Assembly (NCBI RefSeq): GCF_001713395.1
Contig: NZ_CP016450.1
Location: 3,110,001-3,174,000 of the forward strand
DNA length: 64,000 nucleotides
Direction of reading: 5' to 3'
Origin: Sinorhizobium sp. RAC02
GTDB lineage: Bacteria > Pseudomonadota > Alphaproteobacteria > Rhizobiales > Rhizobiaceae
A model generated the notes under the pieces. The model was not told the DNA's origin, searched no databases, and was given only the letters and a program-made list of their open reading frames with translations. Shown here piece by piece: positions 34,332 to 50,626 of this stretch (the stretch's first letter is position 1; the number at the start of each line of letters is the position of its first letter). A program made the position numbers and the translations under genes.

Positions 34332-34477
34332 ATTCGTGGATAGGCCACGCGGATTTGCACGATGGGACGGCTTTCTTGGGGGCATTCATCCTGCATTAAG
34401 GTTTCGTAGACAAATTGCAGGAACGAGCAGAAGACCGAAGGGTCGCCGCCGCCATCGATTGTTGCAAGGCCTTCTCC

Positions 34478-35362
34478 ATGTTTCCGGATGATCCGGTTTT
34501 CCTGATATCGATGGTTGTCGCCACGCTCGGCCGTTCAAGCGAGCTCGAGTTGCTGTTTGCGTCGCTTGCCGCGCTCGGTCGCCGTGATTTCGAAGTCATC
34601 CTCGTCGATCAGAATGCCGACGAGCGCCTTGCGCCGATCGTCTCGCAATGGCAGGACCGTCTCCACATCCAGCATGTCAGGACCGACCGTGCGGGTGTCT
34701 GCCGGGCGCGCAATCTCGGAGCGTCCAAGGCCTCGGGCACCTGGCTGCTCTTTCCGGATGACGACTGCTGGTATCCGGCCGACCTTCTCCAGCGTTTCGA
34801 AGCGATATCGCAGACGGTGCCGGCCGATTTCTATTGCGGTCGGGCGGTCAATGCCGAAGGCGAAACCATCATGGGCCGCTTCGAACTCTCGCCAAGCCCG
34901 ATCGAGCGCGAAAACATCTGGACGACGCTGATCGAATGGATGCTGTTCGTTCGGCGCTCCGCCTTCGAGAAGGCCGGCGGCTTCGATGATCGCATCGGCC
35001 CCGGCTCCGGCACACCCTGGGGGGCCTACGAGGTGCAGGACCTCGCCTTGAACCTGCTGTCATCAGGTGCCCGCGGTCACTACGACCCGTCGCTCACCGG
35101 CCACCACCCGGATGATCGCCTCCAGGCGGCAACACCCGACGGCGCGCACAAGATGCGCGTCTACGGCGCCGGCCTTGGCTATGTCATGCGCAAACACGGC
35201 TATCGTTTCACCGACTACCTTCCGCATCTTCTGCGCCCGCTTGCCGGCATTGCCGTCTACACGCTGACGGGGCGTCCCGCACTTGCCCGCCGCTCGCGGG
35301 AAATCCTGGCCGGCCGCTGGTCCGGCTGGCGCGCCGCCCCTGCCGGAACGACGATATCTTAA
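34478..35362 (+). CDS. Family 2 glycosyltransferase
   Basis: This 294-residue GT-A transferase adds a sugar during polysaccharide assembly in the cytoplasm. It has the N-terminal SMVVATLGRSSELELLFASLAALG, the nucleotide-sugar region EVILVDQNADERL, the RAGVCRARNLGASKASGTWLLFPDDDCWYP block with the DxD-type motif, and a C-terminal acceptor part (YEVQDLALNLL). Start choice is between 34415 (TTG), 34478 (ATG, preferred) and 34511. It opens a plus-strand run GT2-flippase-hydrolase, suggesting co-transcription. The sugar specificity is unknown. Confidence 0.86.
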   Translation: MFPDDPVFLISMVVATLGRSSELELLFASLAALGRRDFEVILVDQNADERLAPIVSQWQDRLHIQHVRTDRAGVCRARNLGASKASGTWLLFPDDDCWYPADLLQRFEAISQTVPADFYCGRAVNAEGETIMGRFELSPSPIERENIWTTLIEWMLFVRRSAFEKAGGFDDRIGPGSGTPWGAYEVQDLALNLLSSGARGHYDPSLTGHHPDDRLQAATPDGAHKMRVYGAGLGYVMRKHGYRFTDYLPHLLRPLAGIAVYTLTGRPALARRSREILAGRWSGWRAAPAGTTIS

Positions 35363-35422: not shown

Positions 35423-36964
35423 ATGGAACGGCCGATGAGCAAGGGCATCATGTCCAATTCGATCATGAATGCGGCGGCGGGCATGCTGCTGCTGGTGACC
35501 GGATTCGCCTGCTCGATCCTTGTCGCGCGCCTGCTCGGGCCGGAAGCCAACGGCACCATTGCCTTTGCCCTGTGGATCGGCGCGACGGGTTCGCTCGTCG
35601 CCGAACTCGGCACCGGCGTGCTGCTGCTGCGCCTCCTGCCGCAGCTGAAGGCACGCGGCGTCGACGATGCGGGGCGGCGTGGTTTTGCCGCCTATCTGGC
35701 GCTGCCGGTCATCGCCTCCACCATCATTCTCGTGGCGCTCTATTTCGGCGTTTCCTTCAAGACCGAGCTGCTCTACGGCACCGATGTCACCACCGGCATC
35801 ATCGTCTTGACGGCGGTGCTGCTGTTCATCCAGTCGGTCGGCTCCTTCTCGAAGAATTTCCTGATCGGCGAACAGCGCCTCGGCACCTTCTTCCGCATCA
35901 CCGCGCTGTCCTCGCTCCTCCAGTTCGTCTTCGTCGTCGTGGGCGCGATCGGTTACGGCATCCCCGGCGCGCTCGTCGGCTACATTGCCGGGCAATGTGT
36001 GCAGTTCGTCTACACGCTCGGCCTGTTCGGGGTCCGCCGCGACAATGCCGGCTATCGCCGGCGTTATCTGCTGGCCAATTCCGCCGTGCTGTTCTTCGAA
36101 TTCGCCGTCAGCGCGGTCTTCCTCAATCGGCCGGAACTGTTCTTCCTGCAGCATTTCCAGACGCTCGGCGAAGTCGGCTACTACGCCGTCGCCCTGTCGC
36201 TCGCCAATCTCGCGCTCCAGCTTCCCGTGCAGCTGACCGGAAGCCTGCTGCCGTTCTATGCGGAGCGGCGGGAGGCATCGGGCGGCAGCGTGCATGCCAG
36301 CATTTTCGATGGCGTGGTGCGCAGTTTCGCCTATATCACCTTCCCGCTCTGCTTCGGGCTTGCGGCCATTGCCCATCCGCTGGTGACCGCCGTCTACGGC
36401 GCACCCTTCGCCGAGGCCGGGCTGATCGTTGCGATCCTCGCCGCCGGCTCGCCGGCCTATGTCTTCGGCCAGCTCGTCACGCAATATCTCTACTCCATGG
36501 ACCGGGTAAAAATCCGCCTGGTGGCAAGCGGCGTCGGCGCGGCCCTGATGGTCATCGGCCTGTTTTTCGTCGTGCCGGTTGCCGGTGGTGCCGGGGCCGC
36601 GGCGGTGCGTGGCGTCGTCTTCGCCATCATGGTCGTACTGCTGCTGACGGGCGTCGGCCGCGGCGCGATGTCGGCCGGCCTGTCGGTCATCGTGCTGAAG
36701 GTGGGCGTTGCCGCCGCCGGCTGCGGCCTTGCGGCCTGGCCGATTGCCGAAAAGATCGGCGGATTTACCGGCGTTATCGTCGGTATCCTGGCGGGGGCTG
36801 TCGCCTACGGGGTTCTGCTGCGCCTGCTGAAGGCGGTGCCGGCGGAGGATGGAGCCGTCATCGACAAGATGCTGGAGCGCCTGCCGATGAAACCCGGCCG
36901 GATCGCGCGCCGGCTGCTCGCCCTCGTGGTGCCGCCGCCGCTGTCCCAGCCGGTCGGAGAGTGA
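35423..36964 (+). CDS. Wzx-type polysaccharide flippase (MOP superfamily)
   Basis: This 513-residue inner-membrane protein has about 12-14 hydrophobic segments throughout, with the flippase N terminus NSIMNAAAGMLLLVTGFACSILVARLLGPEANGTIAFALW. It would flip undecaprenyl-linked repeat units to the periplasm for the Wzy-type polymerase encoded at 46970. Start could be 35423 or ATG 35435. The alpha/beta-hydrolase gene follows after six bases, so the two are translationally linked. Confidence 0.88.
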   Translation: MERPMSKGIMSNSIMNAAAGMLLLVTGFACSILVARLLGPEANGTIAFALWIGATGSLVAELGTGVLLLRLLPQLKARGVDDAGRRGFAAYLALPVIASTIILVALYFGVSFKTELLYGTDVTTGIIVLTAVLLFIQSVGSFSKNFLIGEQRLGTFFRITALSSLLQFVFVVVGAIGYGIPGALVGYIAGQCVQFVYTLGLFGVRRDNAGYRRRYLLANSAVLFFEFAVSAVFLNRPELFFLQHFQTLGEVGYYAVALSLANLALQLPVQLTGSLLPFYAERREASGGSVHASIFDGVVRSFAYITFPLCFGLAAIAHPLVTAVYGAPFAEAGLIVAILAAGSPAYVFGQLVTQYLYSMDRVKIRLVASGVGAALMVIGLFFVVPVAGGAGAAAVRGVVFAIMVVLLLTGVGRGAMSAGLSVIVLKVGVAAAGCGLAAWPIAEKIGGFTGVIVGILAGAVAYGVLLRLLKAVPAEDGAVIDKMLERLPMKPGRIARRLLALVVPPPLSQPVGE

Positions 36965-36970
36965 GACACC

Positions 36971-38764
36971 ATGCTGCGCGGGGAGACCAGGCAAGACGAT
37001 ATCGAGCAGCATGACCCCGCGCCCCGCTGGCGCGCCGGGGAGGCAGCCCTTCCCGTGACCTTCGAGGGCACGGTCGGCCTCTACACGCCCGCTGCCGCCT
37101 CCACACCGCCCGCGGATGTCGCCGTGCTCTTTCTCAGCCCCTGGGGTTTTGAGGAAATGTGCACGCGAAAACTCTGGCGGATCATCGCCGAGCGCGTCGC
37201 CGCCCACGGCGTCGCCAGCCTGCGCTTCGATTATCCCGGCACGGGCGACGCGCTCGATACGCCTGACGAGCAGAGCCTCGAGACCTGGTCGCAGGCCATC
37301 CTGGCGGCCGCGCGCAAGCTGCGCCGGCTTTCCGGCGCCGCTCGCCTGGTGCTGGTCGGCCACGGCCTTGGCGCGACGCTTGCGGCAAAGCTCGGCAAGG
37401 CGCTCGATACTGAGGCGGCCGTGCTGATGGCCCCGGTGGTCAGCGGCCGCTTCTATCTGCGCGAACTGGCCGCCTGGTCGAAGATGGTGGATGAGGGCCT
37501 CGGCCTGCGATCGGAGCAGCGCATTGCCGGCCGCGTCGCCGTCGCCGGGCTGGTCATGCCGGAACAGGTCGCCGAAGCCGTCAAGAGCCTCAGCATCGAC
37601 CGGCTGGATGCGCTGCCGTTTGCAAAAGCCCTGGTGGTAGCGCGACCCGCCCGCGAAAAGGATGCGGCCATTGCCGCTCATCTTTCCAGCCTCGGCACCG
37701 TCGTCGCCAGCATGGACTACGCCGGCTACGACGATCTCGTCTCCAACCCCACATTGGCGCATCAACCGCAAGCGGTCATCGATGGCGTTGTCCATTGGAT
37801 CGCCGGCGTGGCCAAGGCGAGTGGACGCGCGCGGGCCGCGACGGACCACGTCGCTTCGGCGCTGCTGACGGGCGATGGCTTCGTCGAAGAGCCGTTGCGT
37901 TTCGGCGAGAACAACCGGCTGTTTGGAACGCTTTGCGGCCCGCGGGGGCAGCGCCATGGCGCGACCGTGTTGCTGCTCGGCACCGCTTACGACCGGCAGG
38001 CCGGCTGGGCGCGGGGCACGACGGAGACCGCCCGCTATCTCGCGCAGCACGGTATCGTGTCCCTGCGCTTCGATGCCGCCAATGTCGCCGACAGCCCGCC
38101 AGCACCAAACGCGCCCGAACAGGTGCAGTACAGCGAGACGCAGCTTGCCGACGTGCGGGCGGCGATGGATTTTCTCGTGTCGCGTGATCTCGCGCCAGTC
38201 CTTCTTTCGGGCCGGTGCAGCGGCGCCTATCTTGCCTTCCGCGCCGCCGTCACGGACGAACGCGCGGCCGGCGTCGTGTCGGTCAATCCCTTCACCTTCC
38301 GCTGGGATCCGGACATGTCCGTCGACGAGGCGCTCAGGGCCAATCCGCGCTCTCTCGACGATTATCGCCAGCGCGCCTTCGACCCCGCCACCTTCCGGCG
38401 TCTGATTTCCGGGGATATCGACCTGCGTCGCGCGGCGGCCAATGTCGGCGTGCAGATCGCGCGCCGCCTTGCCGTCATCGCACCCCGCACGCTCGGTCGT
38501 TTCTCCCGCTTCGGCCGGTTGCGGGGCGATACGCAGGCGGATTTCCGCCTGCTTGCGAAACGCGAGGTGCCCGTGCTGCTGGTCTATAGCGAGGGTGACG
38601 TCGGGTTGGAGCGGCTAAAGCTCGATTTCGGCCGCACCGGGCTGGATGGCTATCACAACGTGGCGGTCGAGATGATCCCCGATGCGGATCACAATCTCTC
38701 GCCGCCGCACGCCCAGGCTGCCTATCGCGCGCTGCTGCTGAAAGCTGCCCTCAAGATCGGCTGA
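36971..38764 (+). CDS. Tandem alpha/beta-hydrolase fold protein with altered nucleophile elbows
   Basis: The 597-residue protein contains two alpha/beta-hydrolase domains. Domain 1 (about 25-285) has LRFDYPGTGDA and a nucleophile elbow GHGLG (130-134), so Gly stands where Ser should be. Domain 2 (about 300-597) has LRFDAANVADS, the elbow GRCSG with Cys416 at the nucleophile position, and a plausible acid/His pair (YSEGD, DADHN with H574). Domain 1 is thus probably inactive, and domain 2 may be a cysteine-nucleophile acyltransferase or thioesterase. It resembles hydrolases found beside exosortase/exopolysaccharide genes. It ends four bases from the convergent GH2 gene. A role in removing or transferring the aminoacyl/acyl group made by the adjacent carrier-protein operon is inference. 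Confidence 0.75.
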   Translation: MLRGETRQDDIEQHDPAPRWRAGEAALPVTFEGTVGLYTPAAASTPPADVAVLFLSPWGFEEMCTRKLWRIIAERVAAHGVASLRFDYPGTGDALDTPDEQSLETWSQAILAAARKLRRLSGAARLVLVGHGLGATLAAKLGKALDTEAAVLMAPVVSGRFYLRELAAWSKMVDEGLGLRSEQRIAGRVAVAGLVMPEQVAEAVKSLSIDRLDALPFAKALVVARPAREKDAAIAAHLSSLGTVVASMDYAGYDDLVSNPTLAHQPQAVIDGVVHWIAGVAKASGRARAATDHVASALLTGDGFVEEPLRFGENNRLFGTLCGPRGQRHGATVLLLGTAYDRQAGWARGTTETARYLAQHGIVSLRFDAANVADSPPAPNAPEQVQYSETQLADVRAAMDFLVSRDLAPVLLSGRCSGAYLAFRAAVTDERAAGVVSVNPFTFRWDPDMSVDEALRANPRSLDDYRQRAFDPATFRRLISGDIDLRRAAANVGVQIARRLAVIAPRTLGRFSRFGRLRGDTQADFRLLAKREVPVLLVYSEGDVGLERLKLDFGRTGLDGYHNVAVEMIPDADHNLSPPHAQAAYRALLLKAALKIG

Positions 38765-38768
38765 TTTT

Positions 38769-41216
38769 TCAGAACGAAAGCAGGGCCTCGACGCCGACAC
38801 CACCGACCGTGCCGGAGGGTTTTTTAGTTGAATCGGCACCGGTGAGCGGCATAAGCCGGATGGTCTTCACGCCACCCGGTGCCAGATGGAACCAGTTGTC
38901 CGAGGGCAGAAAACCGTCGACGTCGATTGCGACGGACTGGGCGAAACGGTCCGTTGAAAGCTCGAGGCTCCAGCCTTCAAGGCTTTCGAGGAGTGTGGCG
39001 CTGATCGCCGGGGAGGTCATCGCCTCCGCCCGGCCGCGCGGAAAATGGAAGGCATCGGCGACAACCGTTCCCGCCGCATCGATCAGCCGGCCGACCGTCA
39101 CGTCATGGGAGGGCGGGCCGAAACGGAAGGCATAGGTCGTGTCGAAGAAGGCGCCAAACAGTGCCGTTGCTGGCATGGTCTGCGCCGAATGCGGGGCGAG
39201 CGTGATCTCCCGCCGGCCGCTGACGACCGGCTGGCGGCCGTGCCGCAGGCAGGAGAGCTCCAGCGTCAGGGATTGTTCGCGTGCGCTGTCGTTGATCGCG
39301 TGCACGTCGAGCCCGTTCGTGCCCTCGTCGGACAGCATGACCTGCACCGGCCGGAAGGCGCGGCGCAACGCATGCCAGGCGGATTTCGGCAGGCCCGTGG
39401 CATCCACGATACCCCAGCCGGCGCCTGGCAGCAGGTCCTGAAACGTCCAGACGAGCGCGCCGTTGCAGGTGGATTTTTCGCGGCGCCATTCGGCAAAGGT
39501 GGCCTCCATCACCTCGGCGACGACAGCGCGGGAAAGATCGAGATAGCGGGCAGGCTCCTCGCGCCGCAGACGCGCCGGGTCGTGGCCGTAAAGCAGGCCG
39601 AGATAGTGGTCGCGCACATCCTCGAAGTCCCAGGAGGCACCGCGGTCGCGCGGAACACGCGCCTTCCAGCGCGGATCATGCACAGGCGGTACCGGCAGGT
39701 GCGCATCGAGCGTCTGCTGTTCCGGCACGTTGGCAAAGGCAAGGCTTTCGGTGGCAAAGCGCACCTCGGCGCGACGCGCATCCTCCAGCGGCCGGCAGTA
39801 AGCGCCGACGCCGTAATAGTGCGTGACGCCGACATTGGGCGAGAAGGGCATCGCCCCACCAACAGGCGAATTTTCGACATAGGGCACATCCGGGCGGTGC
39901 GCCGCGACGAGGGCGGGCAGGATGTCGAGCGTCAGCGGCCCGGCCCAGGCCGTTTCCGGCAGGCCGAGCATCGCCGCCTGCTGGTCGATCTCACTGCCGC
40001 CGCAGAGCACGGCAAGCGACGGCGAGGCGGCGGTCGCGTCGAGGAACTGCGCGACCTCGGTGCGGACATTTTCGACAAAGGCCGGATCGTTCGCCGGGTA
40101 ATCAAAATTGGCGAACTGGAAATCCTGCCAGACCATCAGGCCGAATTCGTCGCACAACGCGAAGAAATCCGGCGTCTCATAGACCATCGTGCCACCGATG
40201 CGCAGCATGTTCATGTTGGCGTCGGCAGCAAGTTTCAGCAGCGGCGCGTAGCGGTCGCGCGTGCCCGGCAGGTCGACGATATCGGCAGTGGTCCAGACGG
40301 CGCCGCGGCAGAAGATTTTGGTGCCGTTGACGCGCAGCGCAAAATCCCGGCCGTCCGCGCCGCGGTCGATCTCGATGCGGCGAAAACCGGTGCGGCCGAG
40401 CTTTTGCCGCACGCCATCCACCACGAGCGAGATATCGTGCAGAGCCGGCGTGCCATGCGTGCGCGGCCACCAGGCTTCGACGTCGGGAATGGTGAGGCTG
40501 GCGCTGAAACTGCGCTCTCCGTTCGCGATCGCTTCGACGGCAACGCCGGCGCATTCCACCATAGGCGCCGTGGCGCCATCGAGCGTGAAGCCGATCTCCA
40601 ACTGGCCCTTGCCGTTTTCGTGAAGGCGTGCGGAGAGACGGATATCGGAGGCAATAGCGGGCGTCGGCCGCGACAGGCGCACCGGCCGCCAGGGGCCGGC
40701 GGCATGAACCTCCGGGCACCAGCCCGGCATGCGGCCAAGCAGCGTGGTGCGCACGAGGCGCAGGCCCTGCGGCGTGATCATCTGCGGCCGCCAGCGGGCA
40801 CGGGGACCGCGTTTTTCGAGATGCGGTTTCAGTGCACGGAAGCAGAGGGCGAGCCGGTCGTTACCAGTGAGCGTGACGGGAAGCGCATGGCGCACGAACA
40901 TGCTGTCGGAGGAAAGCACAAGCGCCCCGTTCCACCAGATCTCGGTGATCGTCGCGAGACCATCGAAATGCAGCACGGCGTCACCCGGCTCGTCACCCGA
41001 GAGGTCGAGCACGTACCAGGCGTCGAGATGGTCGAGCGGTTCGGGCGCGGTGCGGTCGAAGCGGCCGGCGCGTTCGAGGGCGCCGGCAACCGTGCCGGGC
41101 ACGGGGGCATCGAGGACATCGGAAAGGTCTTGCAGCGCGGCGGGGTCAGCGGCGGCGTTGGCCGCTGTCAGGGCCATGCGCCAGCCGGTGGAAAGCGCCT
41201 TTCCGATCTCGGACAT
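38769..41216 (-). CDS. Glycoside hydrolase family 2 (beta-mannosidase-like)
   Basis: This 815-residue protein has the GH2 order: jelly-roll sugar-binding domain (20-180), immunoglobulin-like domain (185-285) and TIM barrel (290-640) with NMLRIGGTMVYE. The acid/base is in LCGGSEID (E409), where mannosidases usually have GNxE, and a candidate nucleophile is in FATESLAF (E490). Beta-sandwich domains follow. There is no signal peptide, so it would act in the cytoplasm. It is the last gene of the minus-strand operon with DUF1839, ligase, flavoprotein and ACP. AAGGAAGACGGA supports ATG 41216. Its presence in a biosynthetic locus may reflect repair or editing of intermediates. Confidence 0.85.
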   Translation of the reverse strand: MSEIGKALSTGWRMALTAANAAADPAALQDLSDVLDAPVPGTVAGALERAGRFDRTAPEPLDHLDAWYVLDLSGDEPGDAVLHFDGLATITEIWWNGALVLSSDSMFVRHALPVTLTGNDRLALCFRALKPHLEKRGPRARWRPQMITPQGLRLVRTTLLGRMPGWCPEVHAAGPWRPVRLSRPTPAIASDIRLSARLHENGKGQLEIGFTLDGATAPMVECAGVAVEAIANGERSFSASLTIPDVEAWWPRTHGTPALHDISLVVDGVRQKLGRTGFRRIEIDRGADGRDFALRVNGTKIFCRGAVWTTADIVDLPGTRDRYAPLLKLAADANMNMLRIGGTMVYETPDFFALCDEFGLMVWQDFQFANFDYPANDPAFVENVRTEVAQFLDATAASPSLAVLCGGSEIDQQAAMLGLPETAWAGPLTLDILPALVAAHRPDVPYVENSPVGGAMPFSPNVGVTHYYGVGAYCRPLEDARRAEVRFATESLAFANVPEQQTLDAHLPVPPVHDPRWKARVPRDRGASWDFEDVRDHYLGLLYGHDPARLRREEPARYLDLSRAVVAEVMEATFAEWRREKSTCNGALVWTFQDLLPGAGWGIVDATGLPKSAWHALRRAFRPVQVMLSDEGTNGLDVHAINDSAREQSLTLELSCLRHGRQPVVSGRREITLAPHSAQTMPATALFGAFFDTTYAFRFGPPSHDVTVGRLIDAAGTVVADAFHFPRGRAEAMTSPAISATLLESLEGWSLELSTDRFAQSVAIDVDGFLPSDNWFHLAPGGVKTIRLMPLTGADSTKKPSGTVGGVGVEALLSF

Positions 41217-41227
41217 TCCGTCTTCCT

Positions 41228-42181
41228 TCAGTCGATGCGGGCAGCAAGGCTCGACATCAAAGTATCCCATGCCTCGATCGCCGGGTCGAGCGCCGTCGCC
41301 AGCGGATCGAATTTCCGGCGCGTTACCGCGCGGGCGAGCAGGAACTGCACGGACTTCGCCGTCTCCGAAATTTTTCGCGCGGCATCGCCGCCATCAAGGC
41401 CCAGCCAGTCGAGATGGCTTCCGGCCAGCTCGAAATTGGCACCGAGCTGGCGCAGCGTGTTGAAGGCATATTTGTGGAAGAAGCCGAAGGGGCGCTCCGC
41501 CACGGCCTCGACCTGCTTTGGAAACACCTTCGCGAAGGCCGCAACCGGGTTTTCCGTTGGACGCCGGCCGAAATGGAAGGCGAGCAGGCGTTTTGCCTCA
41601 CGGCGCAGATGCGCTTCGTCGGCCCGCTTTTCCGGGAACTTGGCGAATTCCGTATAGGGCAGGAAGGGCAGATCGTCCGGGCCGTTGTTCAGCTGGAACA
41701 GGCCGTCGAAATCCTCGCCTGCCAGCCGGAAGAAGCCGGCATTGTGGAAATAGTCGAGCTGCTTGTTTTCGAGATCCAGCCGGTTGATCGCGACCGTCGT
41801 CTTGCCGTGCTCCTGACGGTAGGCGACGCCGCGGGTGTCCGGCATGTAAAAACTGTCCATCTCGACGAGGCAGAGGCGGCCGCGCGCGATCTGGGTCGCG
41901 ACGTGGCTTTCCAGCTTGTCGAAGATGGCGAGTTCCGTCGCGCGGATGCCGTAGAGCGTTTCGAGGTCTTCCAGCGGCACCTTGAAGAAGGTGAACTGGT
42001 CGCCCTCGAAATCCTGGGTCAGCGAAAAGCCGAGCATCGCCTCCGGGTGAGTGCCGAACGCATTCAGCACCTCGATCCAGAGGTCGACGTAACAATTCGT
42101 CTCCGGCCACATGCGCTCCGCATCGTGCAGCGCGTGCGGCCTATAGGTCTCGGGATTGGCCCCGGCGAAGACGGCAGCCAT
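41228..42181 (-). CDS. DUF1839-family protein, partner of the aminoacyl-carrier ligase
   Basis: This 317-residue protein of unknown function starts MAAVFAGANPETYRPHALHDAERMWPETNCYVDLWIEVLNAFG. No membrane segment or classic catalytic motif is evident. Conserved-looking features are CYVDLWIEVL, FSLTQDFEGDQFTFFKVPLEDLE, a DSFYMPDTRGVAYRQEHGKTT block and LDYFHNAGFF. The family recurs next to amino acid:[carrier protein] ligases in rhizobia, and the start here lies two bases after the ligase stop. A role as the acyltransferase that unloads the charged carrier is a reasonable but untested inference. The longer open frame to 42337 overlaps the ligase and is rejected. Confidence 0.8.
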   Translation of the reverse strand: MAAVFAGANPETYRPHALHDAERMWPETNCYVDLWIEVLNAFGTHPEAMLGFSLTQDFEGDQFTFFKVPLEDLETLYGIRATELAIFDKLESHVATQIARGRLCLVEMDSFYMPDTRGVAYRQEHGKTTVAINRLDLENKQLDYFHNAGFFRLAGEDFDGLFQLNNGPDDLPFLPYTEFAKFPEKRADEAHLRREAKRLLAFHFGRRPTENPVAAFAKVFPKQVEAVAERPFGFFHKYAFNTLRQLGANFELAGSHLDWLGLDGGDAARKISETAKSVQFLLARAVTRRKFDPLATALDPAIEAWDTLMSSLAARID

Positions 42182-42183
42182 GC

Positions 42184-43098
42184 TCAGTCCTGATATCCCA
42201 GAACCTTGCGGACATCCGCCGGCCAGGTCGCAATATCCATGCCGTGGCGGGCAAAGAGCGCGAGCGCGATGCGCTCCAGGCCGAAGCCGACGCAGGCGGT
42301 GTGCGCGACGTCGCCGTTTTCGAGGTTCAGCCCCCACTTCGTGCCAAAGGCGTCCTGGTGGTAGTTGAAGCTCATGCAGGCGGTCGGCTTGGCGGCAGAC
42401 GTCACCGGAATGAGCAGTTCGAACTTGAGGTTCTGGTCACGCTGGTTGTTGGCCATCATGCGGCCGGCGCGGCCGAAGAACGGGTCGTTCGCCACGTCCA
42501 TCGTCACGTCGAGGCCGACCTTGGCCATCATCTCCAGGCCGCGGTCCATCCAGGTCTGGCGAAACTCGGTCACATGCTCCTGCGTGCCCATGCAGACATA
42601 TTCGCGCATGCGGAAAAGCTGCTGGCGGGCCGGGTCGTTGGAGGGCTCATGGCGGAAGCAGTAGGACTGCAGGTCGTAGAGACCGCCCTTGGCCGGCAGG
42701 CGGCCGCGCTTGGCGATCGTCGGGTAGAGCGGATAGCAGGCCGCCGGCGTCAGCACGATGTCGGTCGCCTTCTGGTCCTTCGTCCAGTCGCCACCGACTT
42801 CCATGCATTGCAGCAGGCTCATATGGTCGAGATCGGCGCCGCAGAAGGCGTGCACGGTGCCGGCGAGCTGCGGAAAGCTCTTCATGTAGCCGGAGGTCTC
42901 GAAATGCGCGCGGTTCATGCCGGGCGGAAAGCGCATGGCTTCCGCGCCGTCGGGGCCGCCATAGACGTCGATCAGCCGCTCGAAGCGGGCGATGACATCC
43001 TCGAAGGCGCCGCTGCGGCCATAGAGGCCTTCGACGCCGGTATCGATGAGCAGGCCCGAATCGAAGAGCCTGTCGAGAAGGGAGGTCTGCATATCCAT
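42184..43098 (-). CDS. Amino acid--[acyl-carrier-protein] ligase, seryl-tRNA-synthetase-like
   Basis: The 304-residue protein is a class II aminoacyl-tRNA synthetase catalytic core with no tRNA-binding arm. Motif 2 is [10 protein letters not shown]...LFRMREYV, motif 3 is [15 protein letters not shown]121, E166 and C269 sit where the Cys-Glu-Cys zinc ligands of the atypical (archaeal-type) SerRS and its rhizobial relatives are expected. Characterised Bradyrhizobium and Agrobacterium homologues activate small amino acids (Gly or Ala) and load them on the phosphopantetheine of a dedicated carrier protein, not on tRNA. The carrier gene is at 44272-44526, in the same operon. The substrate amino acid cannot be read from sequence alone. 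Confidence 0.92.
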
Positions 43099-43102
43099 GG
43101 TG

Positions 43103-44275
43103 TCACCCGATCAGGCTGGTGTCCTGCTTGTGGACAAGCAGGAGGTTTGACGTGTTGCCGAGGATGCGGTCGTTGGAAATCATCAGCTGGGCGGAATGGG
43201 CATCGCGCAGGTGCCGGCCGATGCTGAACGGCGTGCCGTTCTTGTAGCCCATGATGCCGACGATCAGCATCGCCTGGTTGATGATGGCGAGGATCGTTTC
43301 CGAGGAGGCGATCTTCACGTTGTTCATCGCGACCGCAAAGCCCATCGAGGACAGCTTGTCCGGATCCGCCTTGGCGGCCTCGTATTCGCGAAGACCGGCG
43401 ATGGTGTTCGACTTGACGAGCTGCAGCAGGTTCGAGGCTTCCGCGAGGCGCAGTGCGCCGGGCGGTGCGACACCGGGGCTCTTGCGCGCGGCGGCTCGTA
43501 CGAAGGCCTGAGCGCGGGAAACCGCGTTGACGGCGATGCCGTACCAGACAGCGCTCCACAGCAGGTGCGAGGTGGCGAGCATCGACTGGGCGGCGATCTC
43601 GGCGAAGGGTTTGGGAAGGATCTGTTCCTTCGGCGCTTCGCCCTTGAACAGCCAGCCGTCCGAGCAGGTGCCGCGCATGCCGAGCGTATCCCAGACATGG
43701 GTCTGCTCCAGCGTGTACTGGTCCCTGGTGAAGACGGTCATGACCTGGTCGGTCGAGGCGGCGTCGGCATGCGCCCGCGACGTGATGAGGATCGCGTCGG
43801 CATGCGCGCCGTAGGAGATGACGGTCGCGTCCTTGGTGAGGCGGCAGGTGTCGCCGTCGACCTCGATGGCGCAGATGCTGTTGCGCAGATTGCCGCCGAT
43901 ACCGCCTTCAGTCGTCGCAGAGGCAAGCAGCAGCTGTTCGTCGGAAACCCGGCGCATGAAGGCCGAATGCCAAGTATCACCCGCGCCGTGCGAGACGAGG
44001 CTCGACAGCTTGATGTGGTGCATGGCGAAGACCATGGCGGCGGCCGAGCAGCTCTGGCCGAGCAGCGAGCAGGCTTCCGCGATCTCGGAGACCGAGGCAT
44101 CCTCGCCACCGAGGCTTTTGGGGATCTGGATGGAGAGCAGCCGTTCAGCGATCATCGCATCGACAGCTTCCCGGGGGAAACGGCCTTTGGCGTCCACGTC
44201 GTCGGCATGCACTGCGGCCACGGCGGACACGCGCTGAGCGCGTTCCGCGAAGCTCGTACCGACGGTCATGGTCAT
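43103..44275 (-). CDS. Acyl-CoA-dehydrogenase-fold flavoprotein acting on a carrier-bound substrate (inferred)
   Basis: The 390-residue protein has the acyl-CoA dehydrogenase architecture: N-terminal helical domain ([29 protein letters not shown]), mid beta domain ([30 protein letters not shown]), and C-terminal helices. The usual catalytic Glu segment near the C terminus is replaced by [20 protein letters not shown], which is closer to flavin monooxygenase members of the fold (C-terminal domain 2 type). It may therefore desaturate or hydroxylate the aminoacyl group on the ACP. It overlaps the ACP gene by four bases (ATGA) and precedes the ligase gene by four bases. Confidence 0.83.
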
Positions 44276-44526
44276 TCGGCCGCCTCCGCGCTGCCGGTCA
44301 GACCTTCGACCGCCCGCGTGATTGCGGCGATGCTCTGGAAGGACTTGCGGTTCAGGAGATTGTCGGGAAACTCGACGTCGAAGGCCTCCTCGAGGCCGAG
44401 CATCACCTGTACGGAGGCGAAGGACGACAGGCCCGCCGCATAGAGATCGGCATCGTCGGCCAACGTCTCGACCGGCACCGGGAGACCGCCGTGTTTGCCC
44501 AGAATGTCACGGATCTTCTGCTTCAT
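44272..44526 (-). CDS. Acyl (aminoacyl) carrier protein
   Basis: This 84-residue four-helix carrier protein has the phosphopantetheine site in AAGLSSFASVQVML. The usual DSL is SSF, and the modified serine is probably S35. Acidic helix II/III residues (LEEAFDVEFPDNLL) are typical of ACPs. The start at 44526 is preferred because GGAG lies six bases upstream; ATG 44538 is the alternative. It is the first gene of the minus-strand operon and overlaps the flavoprotein gene, so carrier, oxidase and ligase should be made together. No phosphopantetheinyl transferase is in the window. Confidence 0.88.
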   Translation of the reverse strand: MKQKIRDILGKHGGLPVPVETLADDADLYAAGLSSFASVQVMLGLEEAFDVEFPDNLLNRKSFQSIAAITRAVEGLTGSAEAAE

Positions 44527-46969: not shown

Positions 46970-48304
46970 ATGGCGGCGCGGCAGGCCTATGCAGGACATT
47001 CCGGCTCCGGCGGTTTCGTCCACCATGCCGTGCCGGCGCCCGACACGGCGGACGGCGGCATGCCGCTCGCCATGCGGCTCTACCGGTTTCTCGCGATCAT
47101 CACCGTGCTCGGCGCGCTGGTGTTCAATCCGTTCCTCGCCTTCGTCAACACGCGCATCATGGGCGTGGCCGACAGCCATGTGATGCTCGCCGAACTGGCG
47201 ATCGTCGGCTGCACCTTCATCGCCGCGATGACGCGCAAGTCCGGCCTCTACATCTTCCTCGCCGTGTTCTTCACCTACATGGTCTTCCTGTTCATGCTGC
47301 GCGGCGGCGCGGTCAACCCGAAGCCGATCCGCGACATCCTGATCCCGCTGGTGTTCTATTTCATGGGCCGGCGCATCGCCGACCTCAAACTCTGCGACCG
47401 GCTGGTGGTGGCAAGCGCCGTCATCGTCGTCGTCTTCGGCCTGTTCGAATATCTCTTCCTCGAAACCTTCCTCGAATATTTCAACGTGATCGGGTACTAC
47501 CTCGCGCGTGGTTCCGTGACGCTCGACCAGACCTTCGGCCAGACCAAGGGCCTGTTCATCTCCGGCCAGCGCCCGGAAGCGCGCACCATCCTGCCTTTCC
47601 TCGGCCAGCACCGCGTCTCCTCGGTGTTCCTGGAGCCGGTTTCCATGGGCAATTTCGCGGTGATCATCTATTCTTGGGCGCTGTTTCGCGGCCGGGCCTT
47701 CAAGGGGCGCTGGCTCACCTTCCTGCTCGCCTTCACTGTGGTGGCGCTGGCGGATGCGCGTTTCGGCCTCTACACCTGCGTGCTCATCACGCTGCTCTAT
47801 CCGTTCTACCAGCTCCTGCCGCGCATCGTCTGGAGCGTGCTGCCCTTCTTGCTTCTGGCGGTGCTGGCGGTCTATGGCGTGACCTCGGTGGAGGGTGGCG
47901 GGCCGAACGATCTTGCCGGGCGTTTTGCGGTGACGGCGCATATCCTGACGCAGCTGACGATCGGCGTCGTACTCGGCATCGAAACGACCAGCCAGTTCGT
48001 CTCGGATTCAGGCCTTGCCTATTCGCTGGTGGCGTTCGGCCTCTTTGGCTTCATCATGCTCTGGAGCCTGTTCGTGCATGCACCGGTCGCCCATGCGAAG
48101 GCGTGGAAATTCCACTCGATGGTCATCGTCTACATGCTGCTTCTGATGCTGATCAGCGATTCGTTCTATTCGATCAAGACGGCCGCATTGATGTGGTTCA
48201 TCCTCGGCAGTTCCAATGCCTTCGACCATGGCAAGGAACTGGCGACGCTTCTAGCGGCGAAGCGCAAGGCAGCTGCCGGGCCGGGCCGGCAGGTTGCCGC
48301 CTGA
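46970..48304 (+). CDS. Wzy/O-antigen-ligase-like polysaccharide polymerase
   Basis: This 444-residue multi-pass membrane protein has about ten to twelve hydrophobic segments. A large loop in the middle (LARGSVTLDQTFGQTKGLFISGQRPEARTILPFLGQHRVSSVFLEPVSMGN) carries the arginines and glutamate typical of Wzy/WaaL proteins. It would polymerise flipped repeat units in the periplasm, with chain length set by the preceding co-polymerase gene. GAGGAGAG supports ATG 46970. The last 54 bases overlap the convergent GH5 gene. Confidence 0.82.
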   Translation: MAARQAYAGHSGSGGFVHHAVPAPDTADGGMPLAMRLYRFLAIITVLGALVFNPFLAFVNTRIMGVADSHVMLAELAIVGCTFIAAMTRKSGLYIFLAVFFTYMVFLFMLRGGAVNPKPIRDILIPLVFYFMGRRIADLKLCDRLVVASAVIVVVFGLFEYLFLETFLEYFNVIGYYLARGSVTLDQTFGQTKGLFISGQRPEARTILPFLGQHRVSSVFLEPVSMGNFAVIIYSWALFRGRAFKGRWLTFLLAFTVVALADARFGLYTCVLITLLYPFYQLLPRIVWSVLPFLLLAVLAVYGVTSVEGGGPNDLAGRFAVTAHILTQLTIGVVLGIETTSQFVSDSGLAYSLVAFGLFGFIMLWSLFVHAPVAHAKAWKFHSMVIVYMLLLMLISDSFYSIKTAALMWFILGSSNAFDHGKELATLLAAKRKAAAGPGRQVAA

Positions 48305-49303
48305 AACGAGGGCTGCGAGCTGCGGCCGGTCGCCCTCGGCGGTCGGCTGGATGTTGAGCGGTTCCGTCGCCGGCCACCAGTCACCCGCCGCCCAGTAGGT
48401 CCAGCCGGTCCAGACATCCGCTTCCTTGCCGATCAGCGCCGTCATGCGGGTTAGCCCGTCCAGGCAGGCGGGATTGGCCGATGCACCGAACTCACCGAGA
48501 AAGCCGCGCTTGCCGTTGCGCTTCAGCCAATCGGTGAAATGCTGGAGAGCACCGACCGCGTCATCCGCCCGTTCGCAGGTGTCGGTCGTGCCGGAAAAAT
48601 CCTTGTCGAGATATTGGTGGACCTCGTAGGCATTGTTGTCGGCAGGATCCTCGATACCGAGCATGACGGCGCCGTTCGCGCCGCCCGGCCGGTCGTCCTC
48701 CCAGCTGTGCGCACCGGTCCAGATCGTGCCGGGGATCAGGATGAGGTTTTTGGCACCCGTTTCGCGAATTCCGGCGATGGCCGCATTGGCGGAGGCGAGC
48801 CATTGGTCGGCCGGCACGTCGTGCGGCTCGTTCATCAGGCCGAACTGCACGCCGTCGTCATCCTTGTAGTCCTCCGCAAGGCGCTTCCAGAAATCGGCAA
48901 AGGCGCTGTTGGGCACCTCGGTCGAGCCGATCTGCTTGTCGCCGTAATAGGCGTAGTTGTGCGGGTCGAGGATGACGGTCATGCCGGCACCGCGCAGCGC
49001 CTTGACCGTTTCGGCAAGCCGCTTCCTTTCCGCCTTGTCGAAGCCGCGGCCGAGCCGCGGTTGCAACCGCTCCCACTTGAAGGGCAGCCGTACGGCATTG
49101 AAGCCCTTGCCGGCGAAATAGGCGATCGTCTTTTCCGAAGGGTAGGCATAGTCCTTGTTGTAGGTCCCACGTCCTTCGCCGAATTCGGCGCCGGCGAGAT
49201 TGATGCCGCGCAGGCATCCCGCACTCGCCTGGAGGGGAACCGAAAAGGCCACCATGGCTGCCACCAGTCGAAAGAGTGTTCCGCTCCGGGATGAGGATCG
49301 CAT
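48251..49303 (-). CDS. Secreted glycoside hydrolase family 5 (endoglucanase-like)
   Basis: This 350-residue periplasmic or secreted enzyme has a signal peptide (MRSSSRSGTLFRLVAAMVAFSVPLQASAG) and a GH5 TIM barrel: GINLAGAEFGEG, FNAVRLPFKWERLQP, the acid/base FGLMNEPHD (E159) and nucleophile FLGEFGAS (E270). It probably cleaves a beta-linked glucan or the exopolysaccharide made by this locus, for trimming or release. The start at 49303 has GGAGACAGG upstream; the open frame to 49543 overlaps the GT4 gene. It is downstream of that GT4 gene by 17 bases, so the two are likely an operon. Confidence 0.9.
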   Translation of the reverse strand: MRSSSRSGTLFRLVAAMVAFSVPLQASAGCLRGINLAGAEFGEGRGTYNKDYAYPSEKTIAYFAGKGFNAVRLPFKWERLQPRLGRGFDKAERKRLAETVKALRGAGMTVILDPHNYAYYGDKQIGSTEVPNSAFADFWKRLAEDYKDDDGVQFGLMNEPHDVPADQWLASANAAIAGIRETGAKNLILIPGTIWTGAHSWEDDRPGGANGAVMLGIEDPADNNAYEVHQYLDKDFSGTTDTCERADDAVGALQHFTDWLKRNGKRGFLGEFGASANPACLDGLTRMTALIGKEADVWTGWTYWAAGDWWPATEPLNIQPTAEGDRPQLAALVSGGNLPARPGSCLALRR

Positions 49304-49320
49304 GCCTGTCTCCGTTCGGC

Positions 49321-50532
49321 TCAGGCGCCGGTCCGCTCCGTGAGCAAGCCACGTGGTTCCTCGCGCCGGCCGTCGCCAAGGGCGGCACGATAGACGTCGA
49401 CATAGCGATCCGCCACCCGGTCCCACGAATAGGCCGCAGCCGCGTCGATTGCGGCGCGGCGATAGCCGGCCGGGTCGCGCGAAAGCATCGTATAGGCATC
49501 GCCAAGACCTTCGGCGGCAAGCCGTGCATCGGCAAAATCGCAAAGCCGGATTTCGGGGTGGCTGGCCGCAAGGTCCGTATAGGCGACGTTCGGGTGCAGC
49601 ACCGGCACCAGCCCCGCCGTCATCGCCTCGATGGCGACAAGGCCAAAACCTTCATATTCCGAGGCCGAGACAAACAGCGAGGTATCGCCGATCAGGTGGC
49701 GCACGGCGCCGTTCGACAGGCCGACATGCACATCGACATTCTTCTCGAGCCCGCGGGCGCGCACCATGGCGGCAAGATCGTCTCCGGAATGATCGCCCGG
49801 CACGCCGGCGATCTCCAGATGCCATTCGGGATTATCAGCCACCAGCGGCACCATGGCGTCCATCAGCCGGTCAAGGCGCTTGTTGACGGAGAAGCGACCG
49901 ATCGTGATCAGCCGGCGGCGCGGTTCGCGCGCGCCCGCATCGGCGAATTTCTGCGTGTCGGCACCGTTGTCGATGCGGGTGACACGGCGGCCGGCGATGC
50001 GCTGGAACGTGCGGGTATCCTGCGCGCTGCACCCGATGATCCGGCGATAGGCGAAGGAGGAAAAACGGGTCGTCGTGTTGAACCACAGCGTCTTGAGGCC
50101 GGAGAACTTCGCCGTGTGGAAGAAGCCGCCATGGGTGGTGGCGACGAGCGGCTTGCGATGCAGGAGCCAGCCCCAAGCCAGCGCATCGTAGAAGAAGTCG
50201 ATCGCATGCACATGCACGAGGTCGGCGTCAGCGAGATGGCGGAAGACTTTTGGCGCGATCGGATACCGCGTGCTGCCGGAGAAGGGAATGCGCACGACCT
50301 CGACGCCGTCGATCATCTCGCGGGCGGGCAGGGCCTTGTCCGGAGCGGAAAACAGCCGGTCGAGCGTGACGACCCGCACGCGAAAGCCGCGCGACAAAAG
50401 CTGGCGGGAAAGCTGTGCGACAACATCCTCCAGCCCGCCGCGGTTCGGGATGTACTGGCGCACGACCTGCACGGCGAGCGGGGCCGAGGCATTGGCGGAG
50501 GAGGTGATGGTTGCTGGGCTCATTCCGGTCAT
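49321..50532 (-). CDS. Family 4 glycosyltransferase
   Basis: This is a GT-B retaining transferase of about 403 residues. The N-terminal glycine loop is VRQYIPNRGGLEDVVAQLSRQLL, and the sugar-nucleotide half has LITIGRFSVNKRLDRLMDAM and the E-x7-E motif SASEYEGFGLVAIEAMTAG. It likely adds one sugar of the polysaccharide repeat. Start codons at 50523, 50532 and 50565 are all possible. It is divergent from the ABC exporter and upstream of the GH5 gene. Confidence 0.88.
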   Translation of the reverse strand: MTGMSPATITSSANASAPLAVQVVRQYIPNRGGLEDVVAQLSRQLLSRGFRVRVVTLDRLFSAPDKALPAREMIDGVEVVRIPFSGSTRYPIAPKVFRHLADADLVHVHAIDFFYDALAWGWLLHRKPLVATTHGGFFHTAKFSGLKTLWFNTTTRFSSFAYRRIIGCSAQDTRTFQRIAGRRVTRIDNGADTQKFADAGAREPRRRLITIGRFSVNKRLDRLMDAMVPLVADNPEWHLEIAGVPGDHSGDDLAAMVRARGLEKNVDVHVGLSNGAVRHLIGDTSLFVSASEYEGFGLVAIEAMTAGLVPVLHPNVAYTDLAASHPEIRLCDFADARLAAEGLGDAYTMLSRDPAGYRRAAIDAAAAYSWDRVADRYVDVYRAALGDGRREEPRGLLTERTGA

Positions 50533-50626
50533 CCGTCGCAAAGGGCTGAAACGCTGCACCCGCACATGGTTCGGGCGATGCCGGGCGGCGTCATCCGCCC
50601 TTTCGCGCCGATCAAGGCGCGGGCAA

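What the first reader, a model, noticed from the sequence alone, without database searches (positions are those of the whole stretch)
41228..44526. Carrier-protein aminoacylation operon embedded in a polysaccharide locus
Four genes on the minus strand with 2-4 base spacing or ATGA overlaps encode an ACP, a flavoprotein, an aaRS-derived amino acid:[carrier protein] ligase without a tRNA-binding arm, and a DUF1839 protein, followed by a GH2 glycosidase. Ligase relatives in Bradyrhizobium and Agrobacterium are known to load Gly or Ala on carrier protein. What happens to the aminoacyl thioester is, as far as I know, not established. Here the operon sits between a flippase, a polymerase, a co-polymerase and two glycosyltransferases, so I propose that the amino acid is oxidised on the carrier and then transferred to a surface glycan.
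Basis: partly seen in the sequence, partly recalled or inferred. Interest (0 to 1): 0.88.

Follow-up and report, generated by a model that had tools for sequence, protein, structure and literature searches.

The report
Carrier-protein route for aminoacylating surface sugars
A conserved set of six bacterial genes looks like a small assembly line that loads an amino acid onto a carrier protein and hands it to an amine, probably an amino sugar bound for the cell-surface polysaccharide; the idea was first published in 2010, and this work adds a likely mechanism and a sixth partner.

Summary
In detail: ACP, ACAD-like flavoprotein, amino acid:[carrier protein] ligase, DUF1839 and GH2 are closely spaced on the minus strand of a Shinella-like genome, inside a Wzx/Wzy-type locus. 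The proposed fate of the amino acid is not new: a 2010 note (PMC2922099) predicted amide ligation to a surface amino sugar, with DUF1839 as ligating enzyme. What I add: (1) the five-gene order holds in 110 of 113 DUF1839 loci; (2) the neighbouring double alpha/beta hydrolase (36971-38764) is a sixth component, found in exactly the same 52 of 297 order genomes as DUF1839, also when unlinked; it is the sixth operon gene in Azospirillum and some Burkholderiales and is fused to the flippase in 30 Rhizobium-type loci; one domain lost its nucleophile, the other has an invariant Cys-Asp-His; (3) the DUF1839 model's only strong structural matches are CcbD, CtaG and AziU3; CcbD joins a carrier-bound amino acid to an amino sugar; (4) Wzz or flippase genes lie within 20 kb of DUF1839 or the hydrolase in 20 of 29 genera (3 expected), not in all. 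Amino acid, flavoprotein chemistry, GH2 role and acceptor are untested; a diffusible product is the main rival.

The parts
44272..44526 (-). aminoacyl carrier protein (84 aa), phosphopantetheine Ser35
   Evidence: PP-binding and NF005480 over cut-off; PDB relatives Atu2571 2jq4 and 4h2w_C; Ser35 115/115
43103..44275 (-). ACAD-like flavoprotein (390 aa)
   Evidence: Acyl-CoA_dh_N and _1 over cut-off; H86, E123, R131, H237, W240 in 120/120
42184..43098 (-). amino acid:[carrier protein] ligase (304 aa), SerRS-like catalytic core
   Evidence: NF005479 507.8 bits; PDB 4h2w/3mey E 5e-99 and 1e-94
41228..42181 (-). DUF1839 (317 aa), predicted Cys-dependent aminoacyl-CP:amine transferase; Cys30, Thr128, His146
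   Evidence: PF08893 444.6 bits; AF2 pLDDT 94.7; CcbD/CtaG/AziU3 fold; conservation
38769..41216 (-). GH2 beta-mannosidase-like protein (815 aa), no membrane stretch found; Glu409 and Glu490
   Evidence: Pfam GH2 domains; PDB beta-mannosidases, best E 1.9e-46; both Glu 112/113
36971..38764 (+). double alpha/beta hydrolase (597 aa): pseudo-domain 1, Cys416-Asp543-His574 in domain 2
   Evidence: co-occurrence with DUF1839 52/52; AF2
35423..36964 (+). Wzx-type flippase (513 aa, 12 hydrophobic stretches)
   Evidence: PF13440 55.1 bits; homologues fused in frame to the double hydrolase in 30 loci
34415..35362 (+). GT2 glycosyltransferase (start uncertain)
   Evidence: PF00535
44899..46959 (+). Wzz/Wzc-type co-polymerase
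   Evidence: PF02706 and PF13807 over cut-off
46970..48304 (+). candidate Wzy polymerase, 9 hydrophobic stretches, no family match
48251..49543 (-). GH5 cellulase-like protein (start uncertain)
   Evidence: PF00150 186.6 bits; recurs beside the hydrolase in other genera
49321..50565 (-). GT4 glycosyltransferase (start uncertain)
   Evidence: PF00534/PF13439

Best explanation
The operon plus the neighbouring double alpha/beta hydrolase form a six-protein pathway that puts a (possibly modified) small amino acid on an amino sugar. Step 1: the SerRS-like ligase adenylates the amino acid and loads it on the phosphopantetheine of the small carrier protein (biochemistry known for relatives; inferred here). 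Step 2: the ACAD-fold flavoprotein changes the aminoacyl group while it is on the carrier (inferred; reaction unknown). Step 3: DUF1839, a papain-like enzyme of the CcbD kind, takes the acyl group onto Cys30 and passes it to a sugar amine, giving an amide (predicted from fold and invariant residues). Step 4: the product enters a Wzx/Wzy-type polysaccharide; the double hydrolase, which keeps a Cys-Asp-His site in one domain and is fused to the flippase in some rhizobia, moves, edits or removes acyl groups close to the flipping step, and the GH2 enzyme acts on the acceptor glycoside (both inferred).
Against: No sequence-level link of DUF1839 to CcbD, and its triad is permuted (Thr/Ser at the usual His position, as PMC10318531 also reports). 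Eight of 29 genera show neither DUF1839 nor hydrolase within 20 kb of a Wzz or flippase gene (contig ends may explain some). In Azospirillum, Mycetohabitans and on a Phyllobacterium plasmid no Wzz or flippase gene is annotated near the six genes (only, at some kb, single glycan genes such as a GT9 or a lipid A arabinosyltransferase gene), and the Phyllobacterium unit lies beside an MFS exporter. One Caballeronia hydrolase sits on another replicon than DUF1839 with no polysaccharide gene annotated within 9 kb. On two Shinella plasmids the hydrolase's locus also carries an ACP and an AMP-binding enzyme, so it may serve other acyl groups. 37 further genomes of 250 in the order of G249 have weaker, mostly half-length hydrolase relatives without DUF1839. 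No enzyme activity or product was tested.
Confidence: 0.5

Rival explanations
1. The six genes make a diffusible small molecule (an aminoacylated amino sugar or glycoside, lincosamide- or butirosin-like in logic). Polysaccharide genes are frequent neighbours because a MOP-type flippase or shared sugar supply is useful, not because the polymer is the acceptor. GH2 would trim a glycosylated intermediate.
For: Six-gene units without annotated Wzz or flippase genes nearby in Azospirillum, Mycetohabitans and Phyllobacterium plasmid p_3, the last next to an MFS transporter; an MFS gene is also the second gene after the hydrolase in L024; the best structural relatives (CcbD, CtaG, AziU3) belong to small-molecule pathways (pathway names partly recalled).
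Against: Enrichment of Wzz/flippase genes, flippase fusion, and, in 6 of the 7 genera where the hydrolase is not within 20 kb of DUF1839, a Wzz gene within 10 kb of the hydrolase.
Confidence: 0.25
2. Dlt-like decoration: the aminoacyl group is put as an ester on sugar hydroxyls of the polysaccharide by the double hydrolase, to change surface charge; DUF1839 is a loading or editing enzyme.
For: The carrier has weak DltC similarity (25.6 bits, cut-off 68); in G507 an amino-acid adenylation enzyme with DltA similarity (below that cut-off) serves the same carrier type and hydrolase; Cys-type alpha/beta hydrolase domain.
Against: CcbD passes its acyl group to an amine, and BtrH is described as an ACP:aminoglycoside acyltransferase; no membrane O-acyltransferase of the DltB kind among the 15 locus proteins scanned.
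Confidence: 0.12
3. The aminoacyl-CP feeds something unrelated to glycans (a peptide, a protein modification or a cofactor), and GH2 and the polysaccharide genes are passengers.
Against: A GH2 match follows DUF1839 in 112 of 113 loci (the other, L014, ends at a contig edge on that side) and keeps both catalytic Glu in 112 of 113 sequences.
Confidence: 0.08

Closest known systems
Aa:CP ligase system of Agrobacterium (carrier Atu2571) and Bradyrhizobium (bll0957)
   Same: Same ligase family; carrier close to Atu2571, solved as 2jq4 and 4h2w_C; the five genes are together in Agrobacterium loci L095, L098, L099, L101 and L105.
   Different: The in vivo role is not established (PMC9437257, passages).
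CcbD/LmbD lincosamide condensing enzymes
   Different: 13-14% identity, no sequence-profile match; Cys-His-Glu triad there, Cys30-Thr128-His146 here; antibiotic, not surface glycan.
BtrH (butirosin) ACP:aminoglycoside acyltransferase
   Same: Papain-like protein of an ACP:aminoglycoside acyltransferase (text of PMC10318531); YxxxHxxH-like motif (recalled) with Thr for the second His.
   Different: Different Pfam family; not matched here by any tool.
Exosortase A-associated hydrolases 1 and 2 (TIGR03100, TIGR03101)
   Same: Both halves of the double hydrolase match these models. Half-length homologues in other genomes (not themselves tested against the models) carry Cys at the nucleophile position in 28 of 30 loci (the other 2 did not align there), and three aligned partner copies carry Arg.
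   Different: One fused protein here; scores below the equivalog cut-offs (75 of 168 and 76 of 203 bits).
2010 prediction in PMC2922099 (note added in proof)
   Same: Same gene neighbourhood, same idea: amide of an amino acid with a cell-surface sugar, DUF1839 (Atu2574) as the ligating enzyme, glycosidase linked.
   Different: No fold match to CcbD, no double hydrolase and no statistics in the passages I read; its supplement was not seen.

Membership tests
Amino acid:[carrier protein] ligase (NF005479) | score over curated cut-off | tested here: met
   507.8 bits against 357
Amino acid:[carrier protein] ligase (NF005479) | no tRNA-binding domain | tested here: met
   304 aa; aligns to residues 311-505 of a 527-aa SerRS only
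Amino acid:[carrier protein] ligase (NF005479) | loads an amino acid on the carrier | not testable with these tools
   needs enzyme assay
Aminoacyl carrier protein (NF005480) | score over cut-off and attachment Ser | tested here: met
   117.9 bits against 72; Ser35 115/115
CcbD-type CP-dependent amide synthase | fold | tested here: met
CcbD-type CP-dependent amide synthase | nucleophile Cys at start of helix 1 | tested here: met
   Cys30 starts helix 30-42; 112/114, exceptions one Arg (L025) and one stretch edge (L191)
CcbD-type CP-dependent amide synthase | Cys-His-Glu triad order | tested here: not met
   Thr (111) or Ser (2) of 114 at 128 and His 114/114 at 146; PMC10318531 describes C(T/S)H; placing 128 and 146 is my reading of the model's strands
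CcbD-type CP-dependent amide synthase | detectable sequence homology | tested here: not met
   profile search of PDB sequences, E up to 10, finds none of them
CcbD-type CP-dependent amide synthase | basic helix that binds the acidic carrier | tested here: inconclusive
   K276 111/114, R284 114/114, R288 110/114 on helix 265-288; carrier E46 115/115; no complex modelled
CcbD-type CP-dependent amide synthase | acyl transfer from CP to an amino sugar | not testable with these tools
   needs assay
Acyl-CoA dehydrogenase (flavoprotein) | ACAD domains | tested here: met
   PF02771 and PF00441 over cut-off; PF02770 below
Acyl-CoA dehydrogenase (flavoprotein) | catalytic Glu base | tested here: inconclusive
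   Ser236/His237 at one known site; Ile366 at the other by my own ungapped extension of the alignment; site positions recalled
GH2 glycosidase | two catalytic Glu | tested here: met
   E409 and E490 each 112/113, exception L054, a partial match on a short contig
GH2 beta-mannosidase | WDWG substrate motif (recalled) | tested here: not met
   W166-C167-P168 in that place in the alignment
Exosortase A hydrolase 1 (TIGR03100) | score over cut-off | tested here: not met
   75 against 168.45 bits
Wzx/Wzy polysaccharide locus | flippase, co-polymerase, polymerase, glycosyltransferases | tested here: inconclusive
   flippase, Wzz and GTs over cut-off; polymerase has no family match

The most novel reading that the evidence does not exclude
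There is a general carrier-protein route for aminoacyl decoration of Wzx/Wzy exopolysaccharides with exchangeable parts: the activating enzyme may be a SerRS-derived ligase (here) or an NRPS-type adenylation enzyme (G507), while the small carrier and a pair of alpha/beta hydrolase domains (one pseudo-enzyme, one Cys acyltransferase) are constant. The same pair, as separate hydrolases 1 and 2, may do this in exosortase A exopolysaccharide loci; they would be acyltransferases and not hydrolases.
Probability: 0.35. Interest if true: 0.82.

Novelty: new variant of a known kind. Interest (0 to 1): 0.66.

Why it matters
What aaRS-derived carrier-protein ligases are for was still called unknown in a 2022 review (PMC9437257), twelve years after the 2010 report of them. 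A complete six-part pathway with a named transfer enzyme, invariant catalytic residues and an acceptor class makes the question testable in one in vitro reconstitution. If true, rhizobia, Azospirillum and burkholderias decorate a surface polymer with amino acids by antibiotic-type chemistry, and a widespread pair of exopolysaccharide-locus 'hydrolases' would be acyltransferases.

Tried and rejected
Chance clustering: rejected by the order count. Operon bound to polysaccharide loci everywhere: rejected (15 of 29 genera for DUF1839 itself). Classical NRPS role: no condensation domain among the 15 locus proteins scanned. Sequence search for solved relatives of DUF1839: nothing of its kind. Long open frames upstream of the hydrolase in 42 loci: only the 30 with blastp similarity to the window flippase (E at most 1e-129; 10-13 hydrophobic stretches) were taken as fusions (28 distinct proteins); the other 12 (0-1 hydrophobic stretches, no flippase match) look like spurious frames. 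BtrH did not appear in the structure lists; absence there means little. Paper searches: three on the ligase, one on DUF1839 (1 paper), one on Atu2571-Atu2576 (2 papers; passages read, the second a transcriptome study that only lists Atu2573 among hub genes), one on BtrH, one on CcbD/LmbD, one on CtaG/AziU3, and two on exosortase systems with ACP (0 papers each). In what these listings and the passages read showed, I saw no experiment on this operon's product. Only open-licence papers are held, so this is weak evidence of absence.

Limits of the counts: the P values assume random placement and independent genera and ignore contig ends; the counts add PF01943 flippases and have no computed expectation. 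G255 counts as near Wzz through the DUF1839 copy that lies outside the operon; without it the DUF1839 counts are one lower. G696's DUF1839 matches in two frames and was counted as present. The 113 DUF1839 loci hold 109 distinct DUF1839 sequences and the 90 hydrolase proteins 86; 80 of the loci are the closest of 563 confirmed matches. The co-occurrence test used E 1e-30 for the hydrolase; in the 29-genome set the weakest best match was E 1.6e-44 (7.4e-51 among the 24 order genomes) and the next matches are E 3e-15 or weaker. Most of the 245 genomes without a match are not listed by name; the tallies and listed positives were compared. 'Unlinked' means farther than 20 kb or on another contig; in draft genomes the true distance is unknown. 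Distribution outside Pseudomonadota was not examined.
Full report
WHAT IS THERE. The window lies in a 6.6 Mb genome whose operon proteins are 90-99% identical to those of a Shinella sp. locus, L026. On the minus strand five closely spaced genes encode a carrier protein (44526-44272), an ACAD-like flavoprotein (44275-43103), an amino acid:[carrier protein] ligase (43098-42184), DUF1839 (42181-41228) and a GH2 protein (41216-38769). Around them are a GT2, a flippase, a double alpha/beta hydrolase (36971-38764), a Wzz-type co-polymerase and a 9-TM candidate polymerase on the plus strand, and a GH5 protein and a GT4 on the minus strand.

CONSERVATION. Of 113 loci holding a DUF1839 match (109 distinct sequences), 110 have all five genes in this order on one strand. 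The other three: L191 is the cut edge of the same place as L170; L054 is a 6.5 kb contig with a truncated ligase match, no ACAD or ACP match in the 4 kb upstream and a partial GH2; L014 is a DUF1839 without the other four genes. The loci are 80 from the capped genome-contig scan (best 80 of 563 confirmed, all close relatives), plus regions taken from samples of the phylum, the order and the order of G249. DUF1839 was found in 12 of 299 phylum genomes, 52 of 297 order genomes in 24 of 118 genera and 5 of 250 genomes in the order of G249, which I take to be Burkholderiales. All 12 DUF1839 genomes of the phylum sample also have the ligase; 9 further genomes of the same order have an over-cut-off ligase without DUF1839, and 16 more genomes have ligase relatives below the cut-off. 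In those 9 the ligase still sits beside the ACAD-like gene, and in 6 a carrier-like gene lies divergently upstream, but there is no DUF1839 or GH2 match. So the flavoprotein belongs to the aminoacyl-carrier part, while DUF1839 and GH2 belong to the acceptor part.

A SIXTH COMPONENT. The double alpha/beta hydrolase was not in the finding. In the order sample it is found (E at most 1e-30) in exactly the 52 genomes that have DUF1839 and in none of the other 245 (set identity checked). It lies within 20 kb of DUF1839 in 41 and farther away or on another contig in 11. In one genus (g3) one genome has both genes and the seven listed others have neither, so the match is not only one of deep lineage. 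In the order of G249 all 5 DUF1839 genomes have a full-length homologue (E at most 5e-49) and one other genome, G507, has one; 37 further genomes have weaker matches, from E 1e-23 down, mostly to one half. In Azospirillum and Mycetohabitans the hydrolase is the sixth gene of the operon, with 4-base overlaps in the annotated records, and it follows GH2 on the same strand in 7 of the 113 loci. In 30 loci from Rhizobium and close relatives (28 distinct proteins) it is the C-terminal half of one frame of about 1100 aa whose N-terminal half is a flippase 45-48% identical to the window's; RefSeq annotates this as one CDS in Rhizobium sp. NLR16a. These are close relatives, so they may be one event.

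ITS ACTIVE SITE. Among 91 hydrolase sequences the first domain has Gly (74) or Arg (17) where the nucleophile should be, never Ser. The second has Cys416, Asp543 and His574 in 91 of 91. The model (pLDDT 92) shows two alpha/beta hydrolase domains. Relatives in the order of G249, mostly half-length, carry Cys there in 28 of 30 loci (2 did not align at that place), and three partner copies that aligned carry Arg. A Cys nucleophile in this fold fits acyl transfer at least as well as hydrolysis (inference).

TWO TELLING EXCEPTIONS. In G507, which has the hydrolase but no DUF1839, the hydrolase gene directly follows a carrier gene of the same family (NF005480, 103.9 bits, cut-off 72) and an amino-acid adenylation enzyme (TIGR01733, 346 bits, cut-off 317), with Wzc and GDP-mannose 4,6-dehydratase genes nearby. 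The activating enzyme has changed, while carrier and hydrolase stayed together with polysaccharide genes. In G255 the operon copy of DUF1839 (L025) has lost Cys30, while a second DUF1839 that keeps it (L014) lies without ligase, ACAD or ACP in a locus with a ManC-type enzyme, two Wzc genes, the double hydrolase, a MatE-like membrane protein (below cut-off) and a GT4. There the copy with an intact nucleophile is the one among the polysaccharide genes. On two Shinella plasmids the hydrolase's locus holds an ACP, an AMP-binding enzyme, flippase and glycosyltransferase genes. This supports the link to carrier-bound acyl groups and polysaccharide, but also warns that the hydrolase may serve more than one acyl module.

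GH2 AND FLAVOPROTEIN. The GH2 protein is closest to beta-mannosidases among solved structures (best E 1.9e-46), keeps both catalytic Glu in 112 of 113, and replaces the WDWG motif (recalled as a beta-mannosidase signature) by WCP. No hydrophobic stretch was found in it, so it is probably cytoplasmic. It is likely an active enzyme on a related glycoside; its substrate is unknown. The flavoprotein has invariant His237 and Trp240 but may lack the Glu base of acyl-CoA dehydrogenases; the position of that base is recalled and partly my own extension of the alignment. Distant relatives include both dehydrogenases and nitrososynthases or monooxygenases, so dehydrogenation and oxygenation both stay open.

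POLYSACCHARIDE CONTEXT. In 29 genera (one genome each), Wzz lies within 20 kb of DUF1839 in 13 (0.78 expected), Wzz or a PF13440 flippase in 14 (1.49 expected), and within 20 kb of either DUF1839 or the hydrolase in 20 (3.07 expected; P 5e-14 under random placement) (G255 counts through its copy outside the operon). Adding PF01943 flippases gives 15 for DUF1839 and 21 for DUF1839 or hydrolase (no expectation computed). In 7 genera the hydrolase is not within 20 kb of DUF1839; in 6 of these it has a Wzz gene within 10 kb. Some such loci repeat much of the window's set (GT4, Wzc, Wzy, GH5; L177, L178). Against: 8 genera show no such gene near either, and no Wzz or flippase gene is annotated in the stretches shown around the six-gene units of two Azospirillum species, Mycetohabitans and a Phyllobacterium plasmid, although single glycan genes (a GT9, a lipid A arabinosyltransferase) occur some kb away in two of them.

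WHAT IS KNOWN. The carrier is close to A. tumefaciens Atu2571, solved alone (2jq4) and with the Bradyrhizobium ligase (4h2w). New here, as far as my searches of open-licence papers show (listed under Tried and rejected), are the CcbD-type fold, the sixth component with its co-occurrence, fusion and Cys site, the exchange of the activating enzyme in G507, the split in G255, and the tested proximity to polysaccharide genes.

VERDICT. I give about 0.75 to DUF1839 being a carrier-dependent aminoacyl (or acyl) transferase to an amine, and 0.5 to the full statement that the acceptor ends in a surface polysaccharide. The main rival is a diffusible aminoacylated sugar.

Noticed in passing
L230:6640-12499 (R. 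gallicum pRgalIE4872c) and L229:9640-12960 (R. acidisoli pRapFH23a): A copy of the operon sits directly after nifX/fdxB on symbiotic plasmids of bean rhizobia (with an ACC deaminase gene next in R. gallicum; in R. acidisoli an exopolysaccharide repressor gene before it and no GH2 annotated after it): a possible nodule-specific version.
   Followed up: no
   Followed up: partly
L204, L207-L213, L215, L216, L218-L222, L224, L225: Mostly half-length relatives of the double hydrolase have Cys (GLCDAAS and variants) at the nucleophile position, and three partner copies (L212, L213, L220) have Arg: these 'hydrolases' may be acyltransferases with a pseudo-enzyme partner. Whether their loci hold an exosortase was not tested.
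   Followed up: partly
L025:13435-14418 and L014:91-1095 (G255): The operon copy of DUF1839 has lost Cys30 (Arg in my alignment) but keeps His125 and His146, while a second copy with the Cys lies in a polysaccharide locus beside the double hydrolase, without the ligase.
   Followed up: partly
L237:12490-19876 and L234:5219-19659: Shinella plasmid polysaccharide loci combine flippase, double hydrolase, ACP, an adenylate-forming enzyme and asnB or a type III PLP enzyme, recalling exosortase A gene sets (recalled).
   Followed up: partly
L171 (G696) and L170:10491-12844: DUF1839 matches in two frames in G696; in L170 about 2.4 kb with two other ORFs separates DUF1839 from GH2.
   Followed up: no
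L060:5256-7366, L036:5142-6227: A class II (D/K/N type) tRNA-synthetase-like gene, followed in L060 by a lysine-2,3-aminomutase-like radical SAM gene (together like the EF-P lysylation pair, recalled), lies just upstream of the operon in Rhizobium; probably shared synteny.
   Followed up: no
L148-L154, L158: Distant ligase relatives below the cut-off (about 27-30% identity, mostly frames of about 400-480 aa) in other Pseudomonadota families, with no match to the other operon genes in the regions fetched: possibly another function.
   Followed up: no
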